From a virus, in the IMG/VR virus record IMGVR_UViG_3300030329_005304, positions 1-56,668 of that record: DNA of 56,668 nt; one strand, written 5' to 3'. The first letter of the stretch is position 1; each line of letters opens with the position of its first letter. The position numbers and the translations under genes are program-made. Of this stretch, positions 1 through 52,832 are shown one piece after another. Below the pieces are notes generated by a model. It saw only the letters and a program-made list of their open reading frames with translations, did no database searches and was not told the DNA's origin.

Positions 1-98
1 TCCACTCCCGCAACTCGATACGCTCCCTGCAAAGGGAGCAGGTTGCGTAGGCATCAGGGGCGATGAGCTCGCGGACTGCGGAGTCTATGTCGAAGGAC
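1..98. repeat. Left copy of 98-bp terminal direct repeat
   Basis: Positions 1-98 are identical to 56570-56667; the next base differs (t at 99, a at 56668). An open reading frame runs through the join in register, so the sequence is a closed circle with an assembly overlap or a molecule with short terminal repeats. About 98 bp fits a k-mer overlap at least as well as a real phage terminal repeat. Confidence 0.95.
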
Positions 99-630: not shown

Positions 631-663
631 TGACCACATGTGGTCAACCCAATGTTGGGTAGT
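631..663 (-). promoter_or_regulatory. Adjacent palindromes of both families before the 616 gene
   Basis: Perfect TGACCACATGTGGTCA at 631-646 abuts an ACCCAA-TG-TTGGGTAGT inverted repeat at 647-663. On the minus strand the order is TACCC-type, TGACCAC-type, then GGAAGGAGAG and ATG at 616, with no spacer between palindrome and Shine-Dalgarno. It is one of two places where both families occur together. A regulator-binding or RNA-processing role is inferred. Confidence 0.75.
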
Positions 664-1360: not shown

Positions 1361-1406
1361 TGACCACGTGTGGTCAATCTCAAGTGACTACCCAACATCG
1401 GGTAGT
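1361..1406 (-). promoter_or_regulatory. Palindromes of both families before the 1346 gene
   Basis: TGACCAC-GT-GTGGTCA at 1361-1376 abuts GGAAGGAGAG; ACTACCC-AACATC-GGGTAGT lies at 1387-1406, just past the stop of the preceding gene (1414). The TACCC-type element has seven-base arms and a six-base loop, so it could also fold as a terminator hairpin in RNA. Confidence 0.75.
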
Positions 1407-1761: not shown

Positions 1762-1877
1762 TGACCACATGTGGTCAAGCACGGATTGGCAGGAGCCATG
1801 CGTCGATTGACCACATGTGGTCAGCGTCCTGACCGGTTGACCACATGTGGTCAGTGCCGGCTGACCACATGTGGTCA
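1762..1877 (-). promoter_or_regulatory. Cluster of four identical TGACCACATGTGGTCA palindromes
   Basis: Perfect 16-bp copies at 1762-1777, 1808-1823, 1838-1853 and 1862-1877, with start-to-start spacings of 46, 30 and 24 bp. The copy nearest the gene abuts the Shine-Dalgarno of the 1746 start. This is the densest cluster in the genome and resembles a cooperative operator, a centromere-like array or a replication-initiation site. A fifth copy with a different centre lies at 2015-2030. Confidence 0.85.
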
Positions 1878-1901
1878 GGGAGTCGCGCGAGAGGAGTGCA
1901 A

Positions 1902-1971
1902 GACGGACCACCCCGTACAGACGGACTTCCCCGAATAGCAGGCGGACCTCTCCTGGAAATTGGACCTCTCC
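1902..1971 (-). repeat. Degenerate 18-21 bp tandem repeats (GGACNNCNCC core)
   Basis: Four copies of a core ggac(c/t)(a/t)c(c/t)cc occur at about 1905, 1923, 1944 and 1963. On the minus strand each would read GEV(R/Q)(L/F) in one frame, but no start with a ribosome site precedes that frame and it runs on through the palindromes. I therefore treat it as a non-coding repeat in the leader of the 1746 gene; a decayed repeat protein is the alternative. Confidence 0.45.
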
Positions 1972-2014
1972 GCGTGGAGCTTCCTCCTCCGGGGGGTCCT
2001 CACCCTCTCTCGCG

Positions 2015-2030
2015 TGACCACTCGTGGTCA
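2015..2030 (-). promoter_or_regulatory. TGACCAC-type palindrome, centre TC
   Basis: TGACCAC-TC-GTGGTCA. It lies between the terminator-like hairpin of the 2118-2357 gene and the four-copy cluster, so five sites fall within 270 bp of leader. Confidence 0.75.
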
Positions 2031-2424: not shown

Positions 2425-2440
2425 TGACCACATGTGGTCA
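2425..2440 (-). promoter_or_regulatory. TGACCACATGTGGTCA palindrome
   Basis: A perfect copy between the 2551-3522 gene and the 2118-2357 gene. Unlike most copies it does not touch a Shine-Dalgarno sequence but lies about 67 bp upstream of the 2357 start, which suggests the site acts on DNA (transcription) rather than only on ribosome access. Confidence 0.75.
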
Positions 2441-2550: not shown

Positions 2551-3522
2551 CTAGACGGCCTCCTCCATCGCCTCGGCGGCCGGCGGAGTCGCGGCGCTCT
2601 CAGCCTCCTGCAGAAGCCGGAGACCGGCGAGGATCGCATTCCAGCGGTCGACCGGGTCGGTCACGCCCATGTCGGCGAGAAGCAGGCTGACAGCAATCTT
2701 GGCCTTGCTGACCTCCGGGTCCTCCTCGACGGTGGCGTTCTCGTCGCTCGCCTCGGCAGCCTCAGCCGCGGCCTTGTCGGCCTTGGCCTTCGCGGCCTCG
2801 CTGCGCTTCTTCCTGTCCTCTTCCATGGCCGTCGCGTAGCGATCGGCGGATTCGCCGATCCCGAGCGACTTCCCGTCCTCAGAGAAGAAGGTTTCAGCGC
2901 TGATCCGACTGCGGTAGGAGCTGAAAGCCTTGCATCCCTCGACGATGGCCGGGTCAGAAGGATCCGACGCATCGAAGAAGGCGGAGACGTGACCATTGAT
3001 CCGAACGACCTGACAGTCGATCAGAGTCAGGGCCGTGCTGTCAGCCTCCTTCAGCGACCGCGGGACACCGTTCCTCAGACCCTTGGAGGGAGAGAGGCCG
3101 ACGCTGCGGCGCTGCGCGAGACAGGCGAGACCCTTCAGGGTCGCCTGTACCCGGGAGAGGCTCAGGTTGGCCTTCTTGCTGCAAGCCATCTTCAGGATAC
3201 GAGTATCCATGCAGACGACAGCATGCGAGACGCCATCCACGACCGTAGCGCCAGCCTCGTTCGTGGCGACGCAACGGAACCAGACCGGACGCGCGTCGGA
3301 ACCCTTCACGTTCTCACAGGTCATCATGACGGTGACCGGGGGAAGCGCGGGGTGACCGGCGTCGATGACCTTGCCATCCGCGTCGAGAGTCGCGGGGACG
3401 GCCTCCGTCCCGGCACTGCTGGGAAGCAGCGCGCGAAGGTGGGCGGTCATCATTTCGTTCAGCTCCTCGGGTCCCGTGAGAGAAGCGAAGAGAGCGAGAG
3501 CGTTTGCAAACATTGCGGACAT
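2551..3522 (-). CDS. Early protein of unknown function with coiled-coil C-terminal third (323 aa)
   Basis: ATG at 3522 follows AAGGAGG, which abuts a TGACCAC palindrome (3534-3549). Residues about 70-190 alternate strands and helices and carry several cysteines (MMTCENVKG, WFRCVATNE, VVCMDTRI, KMACSKK). About residues 225-280 form a charged Ala/Lys/Glu-rich helix (AAKAKADKAAAEAAEASDE). The C-terminal helix pair includes VDRWNAILAGLRLLQEAE. No catalytic motif is obvious. It is the largest protein of the left early region and the first big product downstream of the control region; a DNA- or host-protein-binding role is possible but unproven. Confidence 0.75.
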   Translation of the reverse strand: MSAMFANALALFASLTGPEELNEMMTAHLRALLPSSAGTEAVPATLDADGKVIDAGHPALPPVTVMMTCENVKGSDARPVWFRCVATNEAGATVVDGVSHAVVCMDTRILKMACSKKANLSLSRVQATLKGLACLAQRRSVGLSPSKGLRNGVPRSLKEADSTALTLIDCQVVRINGHVSAFFDASDPSDPAIVEGCKAFSSYRSRISAETFFSEDGKSLGIGESADRYATAMEEDRKKRSEAAKAKADKAAAEAAEASDENATVEEDPEVSKAKIAVSLLLADMGVTDPVDRWNAILAGLRLLQEAESAATPPAAEAMEEAV

Positions 3523-3533
3523 TTCTACCTCCT

Positions 3534-3549
3534 TGACCACACGTGGTCA
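3534..3549 (-). promoter_or_regulatory. TGACCAC-type palindrome, centre AC
   Basis: TGACCAC-AC-GTGGTCA abuts the AAGGAGG ribosome site of the 3522 start. Same palindrome-SD-ATG module as at 631, 1361, 1762, 52550 and 56433. Confidence 0.75.
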
Positions 3550-3639: not shown

Positions 3640-3951
3640 TTAGTTCGGTGGTGGGGTGTAGTGCCCTTCGAAGCCGTTCGTGGATCGAAGGGGCCGCTGT
3701 CGTCGCCTATCGGTCTTTGCAGGGGCGAGGCGAGAGAGGGACGGTGTGTCCTTCTTAGCCTTGCGCTTGCTGTGTTGTGCGTTGCACTCTCGTGTGTGTT
3801 GATTGCACGCGAGAGAGTCGTGCTCCGCTTGCTCGGCAAGGGTCGGTCCAATCTTCGCGCTACCCTCTCGTCGAGAGGCGCTCCGCTCAGCCCGGCCTCG
3901 CTGTCGCTTCAGTCGCTGCTTTTCGCGTCGTCGGTTGGATCGTTCGGGCAT
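3640..3951 (-). CDS. Small, very basic protein, first gene of the minus arm (103 aa)
   Basis: ATG at 3951 has an ideal AAGGAGG five bases upstream. The N-terminal 30 residues are dominated by Arg and Lys (ERSNRRREKQRLKRQRGRAER), and a CNQHTRECNAQH cluster follows at about residues 49-60, which could hold a metal. The composition suggests nucleic-acid binding. Being first behind the structured 0.4-kb leader, it would be made immediately after infection. It could be an early transcription or RNA-binding factor, but no family is recognised. Confidence 0.6.
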   Translation of the reverse strand: MPERSNRRREKQRLKRQRGRAERSASRREGSAKIGPTLAEQAEHDSLACNQHTRECNAQHSKRKAKKDTPSLSRLAPAKTDRRRQRPLRSTNGFEGHYTPPPN

Positions 3952-4063: not shown

Positions 4064-4087
4064 CCCCTGACCACACGTGGTCAGGGG
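4064..4087 (-). promoter_or_regulatory. Extended TGACCAC-type palindrome (11-bp arms)
   Basis: CCCCTGACCAC-AC-GTGGTCAGGGG: the common seven-base arms at 4068-4083 are extended by four C/G pairs each side, making the longest version of the element. It lies in the early leader, not next to a ribosome site. Confidence 0.75.
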
Positions 4088-4433: not shown

Positions 4434-4449
4434 TGACCACACGTGGTCA
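4434..4449 (-). promoter_or_regulatory. TGACCAC-type palindrome upstream of the early promoter
   Basis: TGACCAC-AC-GTGGTCA, followed on the minus strand by an AT-rich stretch and then the candidate -35. The position suits an activator or repressor of early transcription. Confidence 0.7.
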
Positions 4450-4627: not shown

Positions 4628-4667
4628 ATCGCAGTGACGCACGCAGCTCCGCGTATCGCAGTGACGC
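4628..4667. repeat. Two 13-bp direct repeats (iteron-like)
   Basis: atcgcagtgacgc at 4628-4640 and 4655-4667, 27 bp start to start, within a cgcgcg-rich stretch. Direct repeats in an intergenic control region may be binding sites for the replication initiator encoded at 44329-45249 or for a late activator. Confidence 0.4.
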
Positions 4668-4915
4668 GCGTCTACACTAGTTGGTCTCGGCGCATGTGCC
4701 CGCCCCTGGGGGCGTCGGCGGGCGCCCGGGCCTGGGTGCGCACCCTGACCCACCCACCCGCATGTACGCACATGTTCTTCAATTGCCCTATTCACACATG
4801 GACAGTATGCGCGGCTTGTCAGCCAACCCATCCGAAGTGAACAAACGCAGAGGTACCCGGGGGGTTCTTGGCGGTACCTTGGGTACCTGGCCACTGGGCT
4901 CGTTAGCCAGGAGGG

Positions 4916-5031: not shown

Positions 5032-5502
5032 ATGGCTATTCATTCGTTGAGGGAGCAGGTCAGCAAGAAGAGGTCGCGGAAGTGCGACTGTTGCGGCGGG
5101 AGGATTGAGGTGGGGGAGCCCTTCTGGGCGAGGAACAGCTCGGTGAGGGACTGGAGGGGGGAGAGGATGTACTCGTTCACCCAGACCCACCTGGGGTGCG
5201 AGAGGTTGGTGAATGAGATGGAGGAGGGGGTTGAGAAGGTTCGGAAGGGGATGAGTCTTCCGGGGTGGCTGCCAGGGAGTCTGGCCGGGAAGGGGGAGGG
5301 GATTCTTGAGGAGCTCGAGGGATGGGGGTGTTTCACGGAGGAGGAGAAGGAGGCCTTCGTGAAGATGTCTCGGAGGAAGAGCGGGAGGAAGGAAGTGGCC
5401 CGTGAGTATCGGTACTACGACCCCAGCACGAAGGAGAGGACCTGTTTCAAGGCCACCCTCGATGAGGTCGTTGATCTGATGCGGGGGGAGGTCACTCCGT
5501 GA
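5032..5502 (+). CDS. Putative zinc-binding protein at the head of the plus arm (156 aa)
   Basis: ATG at 5032 is the first plausible start; only TGAGG precedes it closely, so initiation may be weak. An upstream in-frame extension exists but runs through the pyrimidine tract and lacks a ribosome site. Residues 18-21 give CDCC-GG, followed by IEVGEPFWARNSS and, near residue 58, HLGCERL; together they can form a treble-clef or zinc-ribbon site. The remainder is acidic/basic helix with a REYRYYDPSTKERTCFKATL beta hairpin. A perfect 15-bp hairpin follows the stop. A regulator or nuclease-associated zinc finger is plausible; not identified. Confidence 0.65.
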   Translation: MAIHSLREQVSKKRSRKCDCCGGRIEVGEPFWARNSSVRDWRGERMYSFTQTHLGCERLVNEMEEGVEKVRKGMSLPGWLPGSLAGKGEGILEELEGWGCFTEEEKEAFVKMSRRKSGRKEVAREYRYYDPSTKERTCFKATLDEVVDLMRGEVTP

Positions 5503-6586: not shown

Positions 6587-7909
6587 GTGCCCGATCCAAT
6601 CGTCAGTCCAGAAGCAGTCCGTCGTGCTCTTGAGCTCGAGGCGCTGGCCGATAGGGTCGGTGGAATCACAGCGGGACCAACCGGACGGAGGTACCCCGAG
6701 GGTGCCCTGACTGGCGGGAAGGTTCGTCTGAGCGCTCCCCAGGAGGACTACGCTGGGCTGGCCGGGCGAGCGTTCCAGGCTGGGACTATCGGCGGGACCG
6801 TGGGGCTGGGTGGCGTTCGAGGTGGGATGGCAGTACCCCCGTCCCCTGAGCCGATGGTCCCCCTTACGGAGATCGACCTTGGTGGCGGCAGGAAAGTTAC
6901 TGTCGGAGGTCGGACGTATGCTGATCTTGCCAACACTATGAGTGTGGAGGATGTGTCCCCAGGAAGGGTCGGCGTCGACCTGAATGTCCGGACCTCGCCG
7001 GAGAATATGCCGCGATGGCTTCACCAGCCCTGGGCCTCAGATGTCGTGAGTGGCAAAAAGCCATTCCCGGAGGAGGGGGTGGAGGAGGCCCTGAACGTCA
7101 TCAGGCTGGCGGCCGACCCTGAGCACCTTAGGGTTGTTGGTAGCAGTCTGCCCCCTGGTAGCGGCATTGCCCGCGGCCAGGAGACGGGGTTCACTGCGTA
7201 CCTCAGAGCTCTGCAGGAGGCCCAGAAGAGGGGCCTTGGGTTCATGTCCGACACAAGCCTCAACTCTATGTCTAGGCGCGTCTACGAGAAGCTTCGGGAA
7301 AAGGGTGTCCCGTTTGCGGACATTAACAACCCAGAGGCGGATTTCGACCCACGGGAGATTCTATACGAAATCGACCCAGTTACTGGCGAGAGGGTTGTCT
7401 ATTTCGACCCCCGAAGCGATGACTTCTTTGAACTCCCTGAGGAAAGGCTGCCTAGGTTTGGGATCTCAGCCGAGGAGTTGGGGAAGGTTGACCTAGACAA
7501 GATCATGACCTCAGGAGGCCCGACCTCCACAGCCCACGCGGCGGAACGAGCCGCCAGGCCGTCCCGTCTTGGATCTGCCCTAAAGACTGGAGGCAAGGCC
7601 CTACTGAACCCTGTGGGCATAGTGGCAGATGCCGTTCTTGGCGGGGCCGTCGGCGCAGGCTCTGCAGTTGCAGGGCACAGGTCAGCCGCACCTGCGTCTG
7701 CTGGCCTCCTGTCCCTTCCAGGCGAGGGCTACGAGGGCTTGGTTCGCCCTGACGACATAGTTCGGGCGGCGGAAGCCATGGAGGCTGACCGGGAGGCCCT
7801 CAGGCAACAAAGGCTTCGAGAGGTCTACGACAGATACGGGTTTGGTTATGTGCCGTATACTGCACGCCTCGACGAACTCAACGAGATTCTTGGCGGACCA
7901 CTGAGGTAA
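6587..7909 (+). CDS. Modular late protein with GNAT-like core and shared terminal segments (440 aa)
   Basis: GTG at 6587, two bases after the previous stop. Residues 1-80 (MPDPIVSPEAVRRALEL through RVGGITAG and YPEGALTGGKVRL to a Gly-rich TIGGTVGLGGVRGG) and residues about 345-440 (glycine-rich segment, then GLVRPDDIVRAAEAM to FGYVP and LNEILGGPLR) are closely matched in the next protein. The middle differs: residues about 185-245 read PPGSGIARGQETGFTAYLRA then QKRGLGFMSDTSLN and RRVYEKLREKGV, the spacing I associate with GNAT acetyltransferases of phages (acceptor helix, SD-x-S, VYEKL). The acetyl-CoA loop is not clear-cut, so activity is uncertain. Likely a virion-associated or delivered effector. 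Confidence 0.6.
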   Translation: MPDPIVSPEAVRRALELEALADRVGGITAGPTGRRYPEGALTGGKVRLSAPQEDYAGLAGRAFQAGTIGGTVGLGGVRGGMAVPPSPEPMVPLTEIDLGGGRKVTVGGRTYADLANTMSVEDVSPGRVGVDLNVRTSPENMPRWLHQPWASDVVSGKKPFPEEGVEEALNVIRLAADPEHLRVVGSSLPPGSGIARGQETGFTAYLRALQEAQKRGLGFMSDTSLNSMSRRVYEKLREKGVPFADINNPEADFDPREILYEIDPVTGERVVYFDPRSDDFFELPEERLPRFGISAEELGKVDLDKIMTSGGPTSTAHAAERAARPSRLGSALKTGGKALLNPVGIVADAVLGGAVGAGSAVAGHRSAAPASAGLLSLPGEGYEGLVRPDDIVRAAEAMEADREALRQQRLREVYDRYGFGYVPYTARLDELNEILGGPLR

Positions 7910-7911
7910 CC

Positions 7912-9321
7912 GTGCCTGACCCTATCGTCAGCCCAGAGGCAGTCAGAAGAGCGCTCGAGCTCCAAGCGAAAGCCGAGAGGGTCGGTGGAATCACAGCCGG
8001 CGGTGGAGGCAGGGCTTACCCAGAAGGCTCCCTTGTCGGCGGGAAGGTCCGGCTACAGGCTCCTGAGTATGACTACGGCGACCTAGCCCTCCGAGCTGCA
8101 CAGGCTGGAGCGCTTGGCGGGTCCGTTGGTCTGGGCGGTGCTCGAGCAACTCGCGCTTCGCCCGAGCCAGAGGGACTCTTGCTTTTCCGGGGACTCAAGG
8201 GAGAGGTTAGGGATCCAACCCTATCCATCCCAACCAAGCACGGCCCTGGTGTCTACGCCACCACAAATCCGATGCTCGCAGCGACATACATTGCGCCAAC
8301 AGAAGACGATCTCTCCGAACTTGGCGGAAGTAGGTACCTGCCAAAAACAGCCACTAGAGACAAGAGGCAGGTCAGACACGTCCCTCTCGGGGGAAGAGTC
8401 TTTCCGGTTAGGCTCATGGACAGGGAGCCCATCGAGGTGACGCGAAAAGGCGTTATCAACGAGAGCACACTGGAGCGCGCGCGACAGAGAAAGCGATCCC
8501 CGTTCAATATCTTCGTAGAGGACGACCTCCCCGCAGGAAGGGCTCTGGTGTCCAGAGACATGGAGGACTACTCCCGCATCTATCCCGGGCTCGACCCTGC
8601 CCATATCGGACAGAAGCCAAGCGACGTCTTCGCCTGGTCGGACGACGCTGTTGCCGAAAGAATCCCCGGCCCTGGCGGCCGTGGCATGACTTACCGAGAA
8701 ACTCTCGGCCTGTTGGAGGATGCCGCAAAGCGGCTAGGCTACCCAACAGAAGATCTAACCCCGATGCCCTTCACAGAAGGGACCGTGCTCTACGGGGGCG
8801 AGAGCCACATCCGCGACCTCGCGCCGAACGAGTACACCGAGGGCGGGTTCTACAAGCCCAGGGGTGGATGGCCCCTTGAGGGGCGGGGCCCGAGCCATGA
8901 GTATTCACCCCGCGTTGACGATGTCCTTGCTGAAGTGGCGAATGATCCACGGTTTGCCACTCCCGTGAGAACGAAGGCGCTGAGGCTTCTGAAGGGGGTC
9001 GCGAAAGAGGTCCTCCGGCCTAGGAATATCGTCACGGACGCCACTATTGGCGCCGGCGTCGGCGCGGGCTCTGCTATGGCGGGGCATGCATCAGCGGCAC
9101 CTGAGTCCGCTGGACTCTTCTCGCCACCCGGGGACAGTTTTGGCGGCCTTGTAAGGCCGGACGATATTGTTCGGGCGGCCGAGGCTATGGACGCAGAGCG
9201 CGAGGCCCTGCGCCAGGAGAGGCTCAGGGAGGTCTATGACCGCTACGGGTTTGGCTATGTTCCGCACACAGCAAGACTCGGCGAGCTGAACGAAATTCTC
9301 GGCGGACCCCTCGCCCGCTAA
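7912..9321 (+). CDS. Modular late protein with ADP-ribosyltransferase-like core and shared terminal segments (469 aa)
   Basis: GTG at 7912, overlapping nothing, two bases after the previous stop. Residues 1-80 and about 375-469 match the preceding protein (MPDPIVSPEAVRRALEL; GLVRPDDIVRAAEAM). The core instead begins LLLFRGLKG at residues 89-97 and has GPGVYATTNPMLAATYI at 111-127. An early F/Y-R-G followed by G-x-G-V-Y-x-T-x-x-P-x-x-A-x-x-Y is the layout of ART-type folds in phage polyvalent proteins. A catalytic glutamate cannot be assigned by eye. Probably a protein packaged with DNA and acting in the host, or a toxin-like effector; a structural role is the alternative. Its stop overlaps that of the opposite-strand gene 9318-9662. 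Confidence 0.6.
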   Translation: MPDPIVSPEAVRRALELQAKAERVGGITAGGGGRAYPEGSLVGGKVRLQAPEYDYGDLALRAAQAGALGGSVGLGGARATRASPEPEGLLLFRGLKGEVRDPTLSIPTKHGPGVYATTNPMLAATYIAPTEDDLSELGGSRYLPKTATRDKRQVRHVPLGGRVFPVRLMDREPIEVTRKGVINESTLERARQRKRSPFNIFVEDDLPAGRALVSRDMEDYSRIYPGLDPAHIGQKPSDVFAWSDDAVAERIPGPGGRGMTYRETLGLLEDAAKRLGYPTEDLTPMPFTEGTVLYGGESHIRDLAPNEYTEGGFYKPRGGWPLEGRGPSHEYSPRVDDVLAEVANDPRFATPVRTKALRLLKGVAKEVLRPRNIVTDATIGAGVGAGSAMAGHASAAPESAGLFSPPGDSFGGLVRPDDIVRAAEAMDAEREALRQERLREVYDRYGFGYVPHTARLGELNEILGGPLAR

Positions 9322-42783: not shown

Positions 42784-43050
42784 ATGTCGAAGTTGGAGTT
42801 ACAGGGAACCAGACTCTTGCGGGTCTGGATGCAGAATGAGTCTCTGACGAGGCGTAGTGCGGCTTCCCGGCTGGGTGTCGGGTTGGCGACTTTGGACTCG
42901 TGGGTTCAGGGGCTTAGGCGTCCTGGCCTGTTTGCCGCTCGGGTTATTGAGGAGGCCTCTAGTGGTCTCGTCAGGGCTGACGACTGGTTGACTGGGGACG
43001 AGCTTGCCCAGGTCCGATCTGCTGGGAGGTCTAGTCAGGCCCCCTCCTGA
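42784..43050 (+). CDS. XRE/Cro-type helix-turn-helix regulator (88 aa)
   Basis: ATG at 42784 after AGGAGG at five bases. Residues about 20-47 (LTRRSAASRLGVGLATLDSW to QGLRRPG) are a HTH of the XRE class: two helices with LG-V between, then the Q/R-G-x-R-x-P turn; LFAARVIEEASSGLVRADDW completes the five-helix domain. It is the only plus-strand gene within the minus arm; its 3' end overlaps the DnaB gene convergently. Candidate binder of the palindromes described here; a Cro/repressor role is inferred. Confidence 0.75.
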   Translation: MSKLELQGTRLLRVWMQNESLTRRSAASRLGVGLATLDSWVQGLRRPGLFAARVIEEASSGLVRADDWLTGDELAQVRSAGRSSQAPS

Positions 43051-44332
43051 ACCCCGGGTCCCATAGTTCCGGATCCCTAAACCACCCATCACCCGGGGAC
43101 CAGAAGGCCATCCCGGTTCCGGCGGGGCCGTGTCTGTTGGCTCGAACGATGAGCTCAACCTGCGCCGGTCGAGGGAAGTGCTCGTTGTAGTACGCCTCCC
43201 GGTAGACGAAGACGACAGCGTCGGCGTCCTGCTCGACTCGCCCAGAGCCCCGGATGTCGCTCATGATGGGTCGCTTGTCGTGACGCTCTTCGCATCGACG
43301 GTTCACTTGGACGAGCAGGAGGATGGGGATTTCGAGTTCCTCCGCGAGGAGCTTGAACAGTTTGGACGCCTTTCCGATCTCCTCTTCCTCGGACCGGGCC
43401 CCAGACATCTCGAGCAACTGCAGGTAGTCAACGCCAGCGGCGACGATCCCGTGCTTCCTGTGAGCCCTCCTGATGCTAGAGCAGACGGACTTGACCGACC
43501 TCGCCTTGTAGTCGAAGAACATCGGGACATTCGCCCACTCCCTGAAGGCAACCTCAGCCCCGTTGGAGAAGGCCTCCGCGTCCTTTGTCCGCACGTCCGT
43601 CGTGGTGCTTAGAATGCGACGGGCCAGGGCGGCCCTCCCCATCTCAGCGGAACAGAAAAGCACCGGGCCATGGTCCCTGGCCACGTTGGCCAGAAGAGAC
43701 ATCGCCAGGTGTGTCTTGCCCATCTTCGGCCTACCGCCCAGCACGACAACGTGGCCAGGGCCAGCGGACACGAACCTGTCTAGAGCGAACAGCCCCCACT
43801 TCATCTCCTGACCACCACTGGTCAGAAGGCTCACCCGCTCGGAGGCCCAGGATCGGATGATCTCTTCAGCAGTTTCCACATACTCGACCGACCCGGTGGC
43901 CGAGCTCGACGCACCAAGGGCGGACTCGAGGACCTCGTGCAGGTCGCTTGCCGTTGCCCCGCCCTTGCTTGCCCTGTGGATAACTTCCCTTGCAGCAAGG
44001 AGGAGGCCTGTTGCCCGGCTTGAGTCCAGGATGTCCGACACGTACTCATCTATGCGCGTGGCGGAGGGGCAGGACGAGGTGAGGTTCGTCAGGAAGAACA
44101 TCCCACCAGCAGACTCGACCTCAGACGGGTACCGCTCGACCAGCGAAGGGATCGTCAGGGATCGCCCTGCGGCGACAGACTCGACGAGGATCCCCCAGAC
44201 CCTCTTCAGGGACGGGTCGGTGAAGTGGTCCTCCTGGAGACCAAGGCTTCCCGCCTCATGAACGACAGACTCCCCCCCAAGGAATGCGGCGCCAAGGAGC
44301 GCCCTCTCTGCAAAACCCGAACTAACAGTCAT
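43031..44332 (-). CDS. Replicative DnaB-type helicase (433 aa)
   Basis: ATG at 44332 overlaps the initiator stop (ATGA) with GGAG upstream. An N-terminal helical domain (residues 1-110, ERALLGAAFLGGESVVHEAG) is followed by a RecA-like motor: Walker A GGRPKMGKTH near 198-207, FCSAEMGRAALARRIL (DnaB-family E-M-x-x-x-x-x-x-R), Walker B VDYLQLLE near 315, RGSGRVEQDADAVVFVYRE and IVRANRHGPAG (motif 4). Hexameric, unwinds DNA at the phage fork. A lone imperfect palindrome lies in the gene at 43809-43824. Confidence 0.9.
   Translation of the reverse strand: MTVSSGFAERALLGAAFLGGESVVHEAGSLGLQEDHFTDPSLKRVWGILVESVAAGRSLTIPSLVERYPSEVESAGGMFFLTNLTSSCPSATRIDEYVSDILDSSRATGLLLAAREVIHRASKGGATASDLHEVLESALGASSSATGSVEYVETAEEIIRSWASERVSLLTSGGQEMKWGLFALDRFVSAGPGHVVVLGGRPKMGKTHLAMSLLANVARDHGPVLFCSAEMGRAALARRILSTTTDVRTKDAEAFSNGAEVAFREWANVPMFFDYKARSVKSVCSSIRRAHRKHGIVAAGVDYLQLLEMSGARSEEEEIGKASKLFKLLAEELEIPILLLVQVNRRCEERHDKRPIMSDIRGSGRVEQDADAVVFVYREAYYNEHFPRPAQVELIVRANRHGPAGTGMAFWSPGDGWFRDPELWDPGFRRGPD
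43809..43824 (-). promoter_or_regulatory. Imperfect TGACCA-type palindrome inside the helicase gene
   Basis: TGACCA-CCAC-TGGTCA: six-base arms and a four-base centre unlike the seven-plus-two pattern elsewhere, and inside coding sequence. Could be chance or a weak internal site. Confidence 0.3.
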
Positions 44333-45249
44333 TGGTGAACTCCGTTCCGCCCCTCGAGCCACCGCATCACCTCAACCTCAACGGACGGTGACGGGACCGG
44401 GAGCTTGTACTCGGACATGTAATGAATGAGGGAGCCAGCAAGCATCGGCCTGCCGAGCTGCTCGCACTCATCCTTGAAGCGCAAGGCAGCCGAGGCGTTC
44501 TTCTCCAGCCAACCCTCAAGAGACGTAGAGGCGCCGGACCACTCCAGAGCCGACTCCACCCGCCCAGGCAACTTCGAGGCGACGAGGATGTTGTTCAGCC
44601 TGTCGTAGCCGTTCTTCCGTTGGTATGCGTAGGAGGTGGACTCCTTAGCCCAACGGACGACGAGGCAGAGGTCGTCAGCGGAGTGCTCCCTCAGAGCCTT
44701 CTCGATGAGTTTCCGCCAACTCGCCGTGGGCTCCTGTCGGCTTCGCGGGTGATACCCGCGGTAGACCGACCAGACCTTGGCGACATCACCAGCATGATCA
44801 GACCCCGGGTCTGATCGTTCTTCCATACCTCCATCCTTCCATACCTCCAATACGACTTCTTGGTGACACGGCGTCTGTTGACCTTCGACACCGTGTCGAA
44901 CAAAAGTCGTCAAACTTTTTTCACGAGGCTCGGGGTTGGCCGACTTTCTTTCTGATGTCGGTACCTTCTGGTGCTTTGTGAAGTTGTTGACGAGAACGTA
45001 AATGCGGCCCGCAGCCTCGTATGGGGATATGCACCCAACCGCCCTGAGCTCTTCTGCGAGAGAGGTGACGTCAAGTTCGGGTTCGTGGGGGAAGGCGTGT
45101 GCGTGGACCTGCATCGGGATCCATCTAAACCGACCGGACCTGTCTGCGAGTTGCCACATTGCAACGAACAGGAGCCTGGCGTGAGGGGTACACGACGCCA
45201 GTCCCTCATGATGAAAGAACGCCGGCTTCACCGACCTGATACGAGCCAC
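44329..45249 (-). CDS. Replication initiator/replisome organizer with winged-helix N-terminus (306 aa)
   Basis: GTG at 45249 gives MARIRSVKPAFF, matching A-R-I-R-x-I-K-P-x-F-F of phage initiator proteins, and lies eight bases after AGGAGG; a GTG two codons earlier sits too close. Residues 1-95 (LARLLFVAMWQLADRSGRFR-like and DVTSLAEELRAVGCISPYEA) are the winged helix. After a linker, a DnaD-like helical domain (about 160-230, WRKLIEKALREHSADDLCLV) probably loads the helicase encoded next. Its target may be the direct repeats at 4628-4667. Confidence 0.75.
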   Translation of the reverse strand: MARIRSVKPAFFHHEGLASCTPHARLLFVAMWQLADRSGRFRWIPMQVHAHAFPHEPELDVTSLAEELRAVGCISPYEAAGRIYVLVNNFTKHQKVPTSERKSANPEPREKSLTTFVRHGVEGQQTPCHQEVVLEVWKDGGMEERSDPGSDHAGDVAKVWSVYRGYHPRSRQEPTASWRKLIEKALREHSADDLCLVVRWAKESTSYAYQRKNGYDRLNNILVASKLPGRVESALEWSGASTSLEGWLEKNASAALRFKDECEQLGRPMLAGSLIHYMSEYKLPVPSPSVEVEVMRWLEGRNGVHQ

Positions 45250-45501: not shown

Positions 45502-45831
45502 CTAGTCCCTCTCGAGGGCGGAGACTTCCCGAAGCGCCTGTCCTACCTTGCTCTCTAGGCCCCGCCTGGCTCTTGCCTTGGCGACTGCCTGTCGGGACAC
45601 GCCGAGATCTCTCGCGACCCTTCCGTCCGACCAGACACCCAGCATTGGGTGGTAGTCGCCCCTTCGCCTTGCTCCCTGAGGGCTCACCACGCCGAAGCGG
45701 ATCGCTGTCTTCCTGGCGGTCTCAAAGCTTATCCCCCACTTCTCAGACAGCTTGCGAAGAGACTGGAGGGCCTCGTAGTCTTCGATGAACTCGTCCCTCC
45801 TGTCCTCCTGGACCGCAAAACACCTACCCAT
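45502..45831 (-). CDS. Probable DNA-binding regulator with two helix-turn-helix segments (109 aa)
   Basis: ATG at 45831 follows AAGGGAGAG. Residues about 20-50 (DYEALQSLRKLSEKWGISFE then TARKTAIRFGV) and about 72-95 (DGRVARDLGVSRQAVAKARA) both fit HTHs. Directly downstream of the methyltransferase, it could regulate it or other early genes. The two tandem HTHs could contact both arms of a palindrome as one chain; inference. Confidence 0.65.
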   Translation of the reverse strand: MGRCFAVQEDRRDEFIEDYEALQSLRKLSEKWGISFETARKTAIRFGVVSPQGARRRGDYHPMLGVWSDGRVARDLGVSRQAVAKARARRGLESKVGQALREVSALERD

Positions 45832-50879: not shown

Positions 50880-50895
50880 TACCCAACATTGGGTA
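50880..50895 (-). promoter_or_regulatory. TACCC-type palindrome before the 50864 gene
   Basis: TACCCAACATTGGGTA, perfect arms with AACATT centre; abuts GGAAGGAG on the minus strand. It is the clearest copy of the second family. Confidence 0.75.
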
Positions 50896-51457: not shown

Positions 51458-51473
51458 TACCCAGCGTTGGGTA
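51458..51473 (-). promoter_or_regulatory. TACCC-type palindrome before the 51443 gene
   Basis: TACCC-AGCGTT-GGGTA. The arms are kept while the centre differs (AGCGTT against AACATT), indicating that the arms are the conserved part. It abuts GGGAAGG. Confidence 0.7.
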
Positions 51474-52213: not shown

Positions 52214-52276
52214 CTACTCAGCCGCGACGATGGCGGCGATGATTGACACCCAGGCAACTACAGAGATCGCAGTCAC
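52214..52276 (-). CDS. Possible 20-residue membrane micropeptide
   Basis: GTG at 52276 overlaps the TGA of the upstream gene (GTGA) and TAG is at 52214, nine bases before the next start's leader. It reads TAISVVAWVSIIAAIVAA with almost only hydrophobic residues, a plausible transmembrane helix. There is no own Shine-Dalgarno other than that of coupling. Could be chance. Confidence 0.35.
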   Translation of the reverse strand: MTAISVVAWVSIIAAIVAAE

Positions 52277-52536
52277 CGACCGAGGACCGGAAAAGTCCAC
52301 TCCTCGACGCTGCCGTTCCCCCCAAACAGAGCTCCGCCGTCGTTCCCCTCATCGTCTTGGGATGGGAAGATGTAGGACCCGTCATCGAAGGCGATGACGA
52401 GGGAGCGGCTGTACCAACCCATGTCCTCTGCCTCCTCTGCCGTCAGGTACCTGACCGACACGACGCTCCGTCCGACCAGGCGGTCCCTCGCGTACTTGTT
52501 CCAGTGCTTGTCTCGCTCTTCGGTGTTCTTGAACAT
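52273..52536 (-). CDS. Small conserved-type hypothetical (87 aa)
   Basis: ATG at 52536 follows GGAAGGAAAG, which abuts a TGACCAC palindrome. WNKYARDRLVGRSVVSVRYL, then LTAEEAEDMGWYSRSLVIAF and DDGSYIFPSQDDEGNDGGAL; this is the plan of small phage proteins in which a beta-hairpin surrounds a DDG-x-x-I/L-x-P-S-x-D-D-E-G-N motif. Function unknown. Confidence 0.65.
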   Translation of the reverse strand: MFKNTEERDKHWNKYARDRLVGRSVVSVRYLTAEEAEDMGWYSRSLVIAFDDGSYIFPSQDDEGNDGGALFGGNGSVEEWTFPVLGR

Positions 52537-52549
52537 GTCTTTCCTTCCT

Positions 52550-52565
52550 TGACCACTAGTGGTCA
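52550..52565 (-). promoter_or_regulatory. TGACCAC-type palindrome before the 52536 gene
   Basis: TGACCAC-TA-GTGGTCA abuts AAGGAAGGA. Its left part is within the stop region of the preceding gene (52563). Confidence 0.75.
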
Positions 52566-52832
52566 GTTTCCTCTGTAGGACGAGTAGCCCCGAATGGGGG
52601 TGTCCTCCTGGTAGACCTCTTCTATCGACGGGGAACTTCCGATCCCATCTCGGTACGCCTTAAGGAACGTGCCCGCATCGCAGTCCTCCTCGAGATAGAC
52701 GAGATCGCCCTTCACGTAGGAGAAAGACGAGATGTCTGCGGCGATGCCGAGCTCGACCAGTAGGCTATGTGGGACCTCCAGCCACCCGTGACCCGGGTCG
52801 CTGTAGAACTTGAGTCGGTAACTGTCGTACAT
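52563..52832 (-). CDS. Small hypothetical protein (89 aa)
   Basis: ATG at 52832 with AGGAG six bases upstream. YRLKFYSDPGHGWLEVPHSL, then LVELGIAADISSFSYVKGDL and VYLEEDCDAGTFLKAYRDG. The SDPGHGWLEV ... L-V-E-L-G-I ... I-S-x-(F/Y)-S-Y x-x-G-D-x-(V/A)-Y-L-E-E-D-C-D-A arrangement is one I recall from many phages. Role unknown. Confidence 0.7.
   Translation of the reverse strand: MYDSYRLKFYSDPGHGWLEVPHSLLVELGIAADISSFSYVKGDLVYLEEDCDAGTFLKAYRDGIGSSPSIEEVYQEDTPIRGYSSYRGN

What the first reader, a model, noticed from the sequence alone, without database searches (positions are those of the whole stretch)
1762..2030. Five palindromes in 270 bp
Four identical copies with decreasing spacing (46, 30, 24 bp) and a fifth at 2015 form the densest cluster. 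Only the copy at 1762 is next to a ribosome site, so the rest must act on DNA. Candidates: cooperative operator, partition-like site or initiator array.
Basis: partly seen in the sequence, partly recalled or inferred. Interest (0 to 1): 0.6.

Follow-up and report, generated by a model that had tools for sequence, protein, structure and literature searches.

The report
Marine phage's dispersed, swappable operator sites
The five palindromes are the densest part of a set of 13 near-identical regulatory sites dotted along the early genes of an uncultured marine phage, and related phages carry the same layout with a completely different palindrome, which looks like a phage-specific regulator and its many operators being exchanged as a matched set.

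Summary
Confirmed: four exact TGACCACATGTGGTCA and one TGACCACTCGTGGTCA lie at 1762-2030. They belong to 13 copies of TGACCACNNGTGGTCA (0.01 expected), all within about 8.5 kb of the leftward early region once the genome is read as a circle (98-nt terminal repeat). Eight of 13 are followed by a ribosome site and start codon on the early strand.

Relatives show what it is. At least eight palindrome sequences, each in 5-13 copies and often abutting a ribosome site, occur in phages of this group; genomes covering the region mostly also have a tight tandem pair 24-37 bp apart. At equivalent positions with about 85% identical upstream DNA, different phages carry different palindromes. This fits dispersed operators ('stoperator'-like) read by a phage regulator.

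The best candidate reader is a 109-aa tandem-HTH gene (45502-45831): among 95-100% identical neighbours it is replaced by an allele only 40% alike. A second swapped gene (2551-3522) is a rival. Binding is not shown.

No integrase, serine recombinase, ParA or ParB was found, so partition is unsupported and lysogeny unproven. Closest known: cluster A stoperators and cluster K ESAS of mycobacteriophages; their asymmetric-site and SAS criteria fail. New variant of a known kind.

The parts
1762..1777 (.). operator-like palindrome TGACCACATGTGGTCA, abuts SD of leftward gene 1414-1746
1808..1823 (.). operator-like palindrome (cluster), exact copy
1838..1853 (.). operator-like palindrome (cluster), exact copy
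1862..1877 (.). operator-like palindrome (cluster), exact copy, 18-bp perfect palindrome
2015..2030 (.). operator-like palindrome TGACCACTCGTGGTCA (fifth of cluster)
631..646 (.). same motif, abuts SD of leftward gene that runs from 616 across the circle junction to 56460
1361..1376 (.). same motif, abuts SD of leftward gene 1083-1346
2425..2440 (.). same motif, about 70 nt upstream of leftward gene 2118-2357
3534..3549 (.). same motif, abuts SD of leftward gene 2551-3522
4068..4083 (.). same motif, no convincing start next to it
4434..4449 (.). same motif, first site of the leftward region; a weak sigma-70-like site (TTGACC-18-TACATT, 4413-4384) follows it
52550..52565 (.). same motif, between stop of gene 52563-52832 and SD of gene 52273-52536
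56433..56448 (.). same motif, abuts SD of the next leftward gene
45502..45831 (-). 109-aa tandem helix-turn-helix protein ('hth45'): best candidate for the protein that reads the sites; swapped cassette in relatives
2551..3522 (-). 323-aa protein of unknown fold, large first gene of the leftward operon; also replaced between phage types; rival reader or antagonist
42784..43050 (+).
646..661 (.). second-type palindrome (TACCCAACATTGGGTT on early strand), directly beside operator 631
1389..1404 (.). second-type palindrome TACCCGATGTTGGGTA near operator 1361
50880..50895 (.). second-type palindrome TACCCAATGTTGGGTA abutting an SD
51458..51473 (.). second-type palindrome TACCCAACGCTGGGTA abutting an SD
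55173..55188 (.). second-type palindrome CACCCAATGTTGGGTA abutting an SD

Best explanation
The five palindromes are the tandem core of a dispersed set of DNA operators for one phage-encoded regulator, most likely a repressor. Bound as a symmetric complex, it would block transcription at the tandem core (a main control point) and, at the copies squeezed between a stop codon and the next ribosome site, act as a roadblock to initiation or elongation, like a stoperator. The probable reader is the small tandem-HTH protein at 45502-45831. Shown by sequence: the set, its layout, its conservation of place with change of sequence in relatives, and the cassette swap of the HTH gene. Inferred: that the HTH protein binds the sites, that binding represses, and that the swapping is selection for a private specificity so that one phage does not shut off another.
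For: 13 sites against 0.01 expected, confined to the early region, 8 of 13 before a ribosome site. Relatives found through TerL, Sak4 and HTH genes carry their own families: YGCCANCTAGNTGGCR, TGCCAYSTASGTGGCA (7), TGTCGATTAATCGACA (8), TTACCANNNNTGGTAA (8-10), YTGAAAYNNATTTCAA (7), YGCCCAAYRTTGGGCA (7), CAACACTTAAACGTTG (5), CAAYYTTTAAARRTTG. Tandem pair 24-37 bp apart in eight contigs. Same position, upstream DNA 84-86% identical, site only 4-5 of 16 identical between G001/G032 and G023. hth45: G023 v G022 neighbours 95-100% identical, hth45 40%; nucleotide identity falls from about 98% to about 50% just over that gene. AlphaFold model of hth45 has two HTH units, mean pLDDT 75 and about 90 in the first. 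hth45 similarity correlates with operator half-site similarity, r 0.43, p 0.019, nine types. Variant sites break the stem with only one compensated pair.
Against: No binding data. The nine-type correlation is weak and confounded by descent. G022/G024, where the HTH swap is cleanest, stop short of the operators, so the matching operator change was not seen in that pair. A second gene (2551-3522) is also swapped. Recognition-face residues of hth45 are very variable but so are other surface residues. No integrase, serine recombinase or partition gene was found, so there is no sign of lysogeny. No convincing sigma-70 promoters next to the sites.
Confidence: 0.72

Rival explanations
1. The sites are operators, but the reader is the hypervariable protein of 2551-3522 (or its short basic neighbour 3640-3951), not hth45; it would regulate itself through the palindrome before its own SD.
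For: It lies next to the sites, has one just before its SD, and its type follows the operator type: WIN-G023 35% identical (E 4e-18) with similar operators, G001-G032 30% (E 3e-18) with near-identical operators, while G001-G023 share 81-99% identical neighbours but no detectable similarity here.
Against: No known DNA-binding domain; structure prediction failed, pLDDT 41. Linked position could explain the association by co-transfer.
Confidence: 0.2
2. The palindromes act as RNA hairpins in the leader, controlling translation or mRNA stability.
For: Position right before SDs; the WIN hairpin is modestly stable (-7.5 kcal/mol, z -1.9); the four free central bases of the G023 type fit a tetraloop.
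Against: Tandem copies away from any start; variant sites in G007/G038 break stem pairs (5 and 3 broken cells) with at most one compensated pair, and the central TTAA or CTAG, which would be loop, is invariant; the G040 hairpin is no better than shuffled (z 0.13); no Rfam match.
Confidence: 0.08
3. The cluster is an origin or initiator array, or a partition site, and gene-start copies are secondary.
For: Direct repeats GTCCGYCT (three) beside the cluster, and a GTCCGTY element 20-33 bp upstream of the tandem pair in six of eight contigs; cumulative GC skew has its minimum in this region.
Against: The skew turn coincides with the change of gene direction. No ParA or ParB. rep and dnaB lie about 13 kb away. 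Copies follow gene starts.
Confidence: 0.08
4. Two or more regulators share the genome: the variable operator is one system and the CCCANNNNTGGG palindromes are a second, conserved one, perhaps read by the conserved XRE protein.
For: CCCANNNNTGGG palindromes before SDs in several phage types, reversed and scrambled controls zero; the XRE recognition helix is conserved across types. Compatible with the best explanation rather than exclusive of it.
Against: Minor sets also include other types (TGACCAC-like sites in G027, TTACCA sites in G042), which fits mosaic inheritance of genes with their old operators better than one fixed second regulator. No such site was seen upstream of the XRE gene.
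Confidence: 0.25

Closest known systems
Cluster A mycobacteriophage operators/stoperators and their repressor (L5, Bxb1, TipsytheTRex; PMC6550527, PMC9283540)
   Same: Many copies of one short site spread through early regions, partly in short intergenic gaps; site sequence differs between related phages together with the repressor; repressor of cluster A has two DNA-binding units in one chain, as hth45 is predicted to have.
   Different: Their sites are asymmetric 13-mers without dyad symmetry, bound by a monomer and oriented with transcription; here the sites are 16-bp palindromes. No sequence match between hth45 and known repressor families above chance, unrelated phages, no integrase or parABS found here.
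Cluster K mycobacteriophage SAS/ESAS (PMC3203893)
   Same: Repeats just upstream of translation starts of a subset of early genes; ESAS are inverted repeats whose consensus differs between subclusters.
   Different: The 13-bp SAS GGGATAGGAGCCC is absent here (2 hits with 2 mismatches, 2.2 expected). ESAS arms are 17 bp, imperfect, with a variable spacer; here the palindrome has fixed length. ESAS have no known reader.
phiC31 conserved inverted repeats (CIRs) and P1 c1 operators (from memory, not tested)
   Same: Dispersed repressor sites in early regions; CIRs are palindromic.
   Different: Not compared by sequence here; the library held no suitable open paper.
lambdoid immunity regions (from memory)
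   Same: Repressor and operators exchanged as a matched specificity among otherwise similar phages.
   Different: Operators there are few and adjacent to the repressor gene; here 7-13 sites are spread over up to 8.5 kb and the candidate reader lies several kb further on.

Membership tests
Cluster A-type stoperator system | More than about ten copies of one site across the early genes, several in short intergenic gaps | tested here: met
   13 sites; 8 of 13 before SD and start; 52550 lies between a stop codon and an SD
Cluster A-type stoperator system | Asymmetric 13-bp site related to GGTGGMTGTCAAG, oriented with transcription | tested here: not met
   Sites are perfect palindromes; the L5-type motif gives only scattered 1-2 mismatch hits, none at the sites
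Cluster A-type stoperator system | Reader homologous to the L5 repressor family | tested here: not met
   hth45 matches only general HTH families, best Pfam HTH_23 and PHROG 638/4441; no solved structure above chance
Cluster A-type stoperator system | Bound repressor blocks transcription elongation | not testable with these tools
   needs a reporter or in vitro transcription assay
   Sites change in place and hth45 is swapped, but site and reader change were not both seen in the closest pair; correlation p 0.019 over nine types
Cluster K SAS/ESAS | 13-bp SAS GGGATAGGAGCCC before start codons | tested here: not met
Cluster K SAS/ESAS | Inverted repeat just upstream of early translation starts, consensus differing by subcluster | tested here: met
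parS/ParB partition site | ParB and ParA encoded by the replicon | tested here: not met
   no PF02195 or PF13614 match
Temperate-phage immunity system | Lysogeny functions (integrase or partition) | tested here: not met
   no PF00589 or PF00239 in the genome; no PF00589 in nine relatives, most of them fragments
Temperate-phage immunity system | Repressor confers superinfection immunity | not testable with these tools
   no cultured phage or host

The most novel reading that the evidence does not exclude
A group of apparently non-integrating marine phages maintains a pool of at least eight private operator specificities. The tandem-HTH reader gene is exchanged as an exact cassette, and the 7-13 dispersed palindromes are then rewritten in place, leaving mixed genomes with leftover foreign operators as snapshots of the change. 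This would be an immunity-like arms race between co-infecting phages without lysogeny.
Probability: 0.35. Interest if true: 0.8.

Novelty: new variant of a known kind. Interest (0 to 1): 0.6.

Why it matters
Dispersed operators whose sequence is private to each phage are described in detail only for phages of actinobacteria. Here the same logic, with symmetric sites and a different small reader, appears in uncultured marine phages with no sign of lysogeny. How many unlinked operators change together is an open question in repressor evolution; genomes with two operator sets (WIN, G027, G042, G032) offer direct snapshots, and the matched reader-operator pairs can be tested in vitro without the phage. 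The rule may also group uncultured phages by cross-repression.

Tried and rejected
Direct search for relatives by DNA in phage records and by the 2551-3522 protein found nothing. A pair-of-motifs scan of viral contigs found none. TerL in bacterial and archaeal genomes found no prophage. Structure prediction of the 2551-3522 protein failed. PDB fold search with hth45 gave only non-significant HTH matches. No hth45 relative in 50,697 phage records. Sigma-70 promoter scans did not tie sites to promoters. G039 shares only one small gene and was set aside. No tRNA or Rfam RNA in the window.

Full report
OBSERVATION. The cluster is real. TGACCACATGTGGTCA occurs exactly at 1762, 1808, 1838 and 1862, and TGACCACTCGTGGTCA at 2015. 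The motif TGACCACNNGTGGTCA occurs 13 times in the window, 0.01 expected. The first 98 nt of the window recur one base short of its end, and the gene at the junction reads through once one copy is removed, so the genome is a circle of about 56.57 kb. On that circle all 13 sites lie in one stretch of about 8.5 kb (4449 down to 52550) where genes run leftward. Eight of 13 are followed within 34 nt by an SD-like sequence and a start codon on the early strand, against 13% of background positions; 52550 sits between the stop codon of one gene and the SD of the next.

GENOME. A tailed phage with terminase, SU10/P22-like portal, DnaB-like helicase, replication initiator, Sak4-like annealing protein, PD-(D/E)XK exonuclease, RuvC-like resolvase and a DNA methyltransferase. 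Its TerL is at most 30% identical to phage records but 71-79% identical to 31 IMG/VR loci. No tyrosine or serine recombinase, ParB or ParA family match. Handles used below: WIN, this window; G001 IMGVR_UViG_3300006753_000036; G007 3300027861_000195; G022 3300006736_000017; G023 3300010151_000043; G024 3300006753_000120; G027 3300006738_000095; G029 3300044300_002865; G032 3300025141_000718; G038 3300025072_000077; G040 3300020351_000002; G042 3300044448_002358; G043 3300025122_000279.

RELATIVES HAVE OTHER PALINDROMES IN THE SAME LAYOUT. A search blind to sequence found in each relative that covers the early region its own repeated palindrome: G001 YGCCANCTAGNTGGCR, G032 TGCCAYSTASGTGGCA, G007 and G038 TGTCGATTAATCGACA, G023 TTACCANNNNTGGTAA, G027 YTGAAAYNNATTTCAA, and, through the HTH gene, G042 YGCCCAAYRTTGGGCA, G043 CAACACTTAAACGTTG, G040 CAAYYTTTAAARRTTG. 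G029 has two YGCCCANTRATGGGCR sites before SDs. Many of these abut SDs; in G027 and G032 the fraction with SD and start inside 34 nt is not above background. A tight tandem pair or triple occurs in WIN, G001 (24), G032 (25), G007 and G038, G023 (27), G027 (35) and G042 (37). This matches the cluster in the finding.

IN-PLACE CHANGE. At two positions G001 or G032 and G023 have 84-86% identical 80 bp upstream, but sites that agree at only 4-5 of 16 bases. So the change is not explained by unrelated DNA.

MIXED GENOMES. WIN has a second set, TACCCAAYRYTGGGTA, before three SDs without a TGACCAC site and beside two that have one. G027 has four TGACCAC-like sites, G042 two TTACCA sites, G032 one TGCCCAATGTTGGGCA. 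These are either leftovers that travelled with genes or sites of a second regulator; CCCANNNNTGGG palindromes before SDs recur in several types.

The XRE protein (42784-43050) is 57-100% identical across types and its recognition helix is conserved, so it does not follow the operator. hth45 (45502-45831) was present in every relative that covers its place. Between G023 and G022, gp88, methyltransferase, rep, dnaB, xre, exo and sak are 95-100% identical while hth45 is 40%; nucleotide identity between G023 and G024, which carries the same allele as G022, drops from about 98% to about 50% over that gene only. Between G023 and G032 neighbours are 86-95% and hth45 48%. The model shows two HTH units (mean pLDDT 75); the alleles match general HTH families. 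The recognition faces are among the most variable positions, 14% and 24% mean pairwise identity against 52% and 66% for the rest of each unit, though other surface positions vary as much. Over nine types hth45 similarity correlates with operator half-site similarity (r 0.43, permutation p 0.019), a weak test confounded by descent. The gene at 2551-3522 is also replaced by type and remains a rival; no fold could be predicted.

MECHANISM. Inferred: a dimer of the regulator on each 16-bp palindrome; the tandem core as main control point; sites between stop codon and SD as roadblocks. DNA rather than RNA recognition is favoured because variant sites in G007 and G038 break stem pairs with at most one compensation, and central TTAA or CTAG is kept. 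Repression rather than activation is favoured because sites lie at or just before the SD, downstream of where a promoter would be; activation is not excluded.

KNOWN SYSTEMS. Cluster A stoperators are asymmetric, bound by a monomeric two-domain repressor, and differ between related phages with the repressor (PMC6550527, PMC9283540). Cluster K ESAS are inverted repeats before starts with subcluster-specific consensus and no known reader (PMC3203893). This case works like both, but fails the defining site tests, so it is not filed as a member of either.

Noticed in passing
window 1-98 and 56570-56667: 98-nt terminal direct repeat that stops one base short of the 3' end; the record is a circle of about 56,569 bp although IMG/VR lists it as linear.
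   Followed up: yes
window 1878-2014: Three direct repeats of GTCCGYCT (early strand) about 20 bp apart between the fourth and fifth palindromes; a GTCCGTY element lies 20-33 bp upstream of the tandem operator pair in six of eight contigs, whatever the operator type. Promoter element or protein site, unexplained.
   Followed up: partly
window 43031-45249: rep and dnaB run with the early operon here but in the opposite direction in the relatives: a local inversion.
   Followed up: no
window 3640-3951 (-): Short, very basic protein (MPERSNRRREKQRLKRQRGR...), 43% identical to one in G023; arginine-rich like an RNA-binding or antitermination peptide.
   Followed up: no
window 6587-7909 and 7912-9321 (+): Two neighbouring genes with near-identical starts and ends (VPDPIVSPEAVRRALEL...), a recent tandem duplication with divergent middles.
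   Followed up: no
window 5032-5502 (+): First rightward gene has a CxxC zinc-finger-like start (CDCCGGRIEVGEPFWARNSS) and is conserved in all relatives that cover it (40-51%).
   Followed up: no
L098 about 4640-4750: G023 holds a tRNA 3'-end-like stretch (GGTTCCGGGTTCGAGTCCCGGGCGTCCCACC) just upstream of its operator pair; ARAGORN finds no full tRNA. Could be an attachment-site relic.
   Followed up: partly
L126 (G042) 4993: Perfect TTGACA-16-TATAAT promoter-like site in the early region.
   Followed up: no
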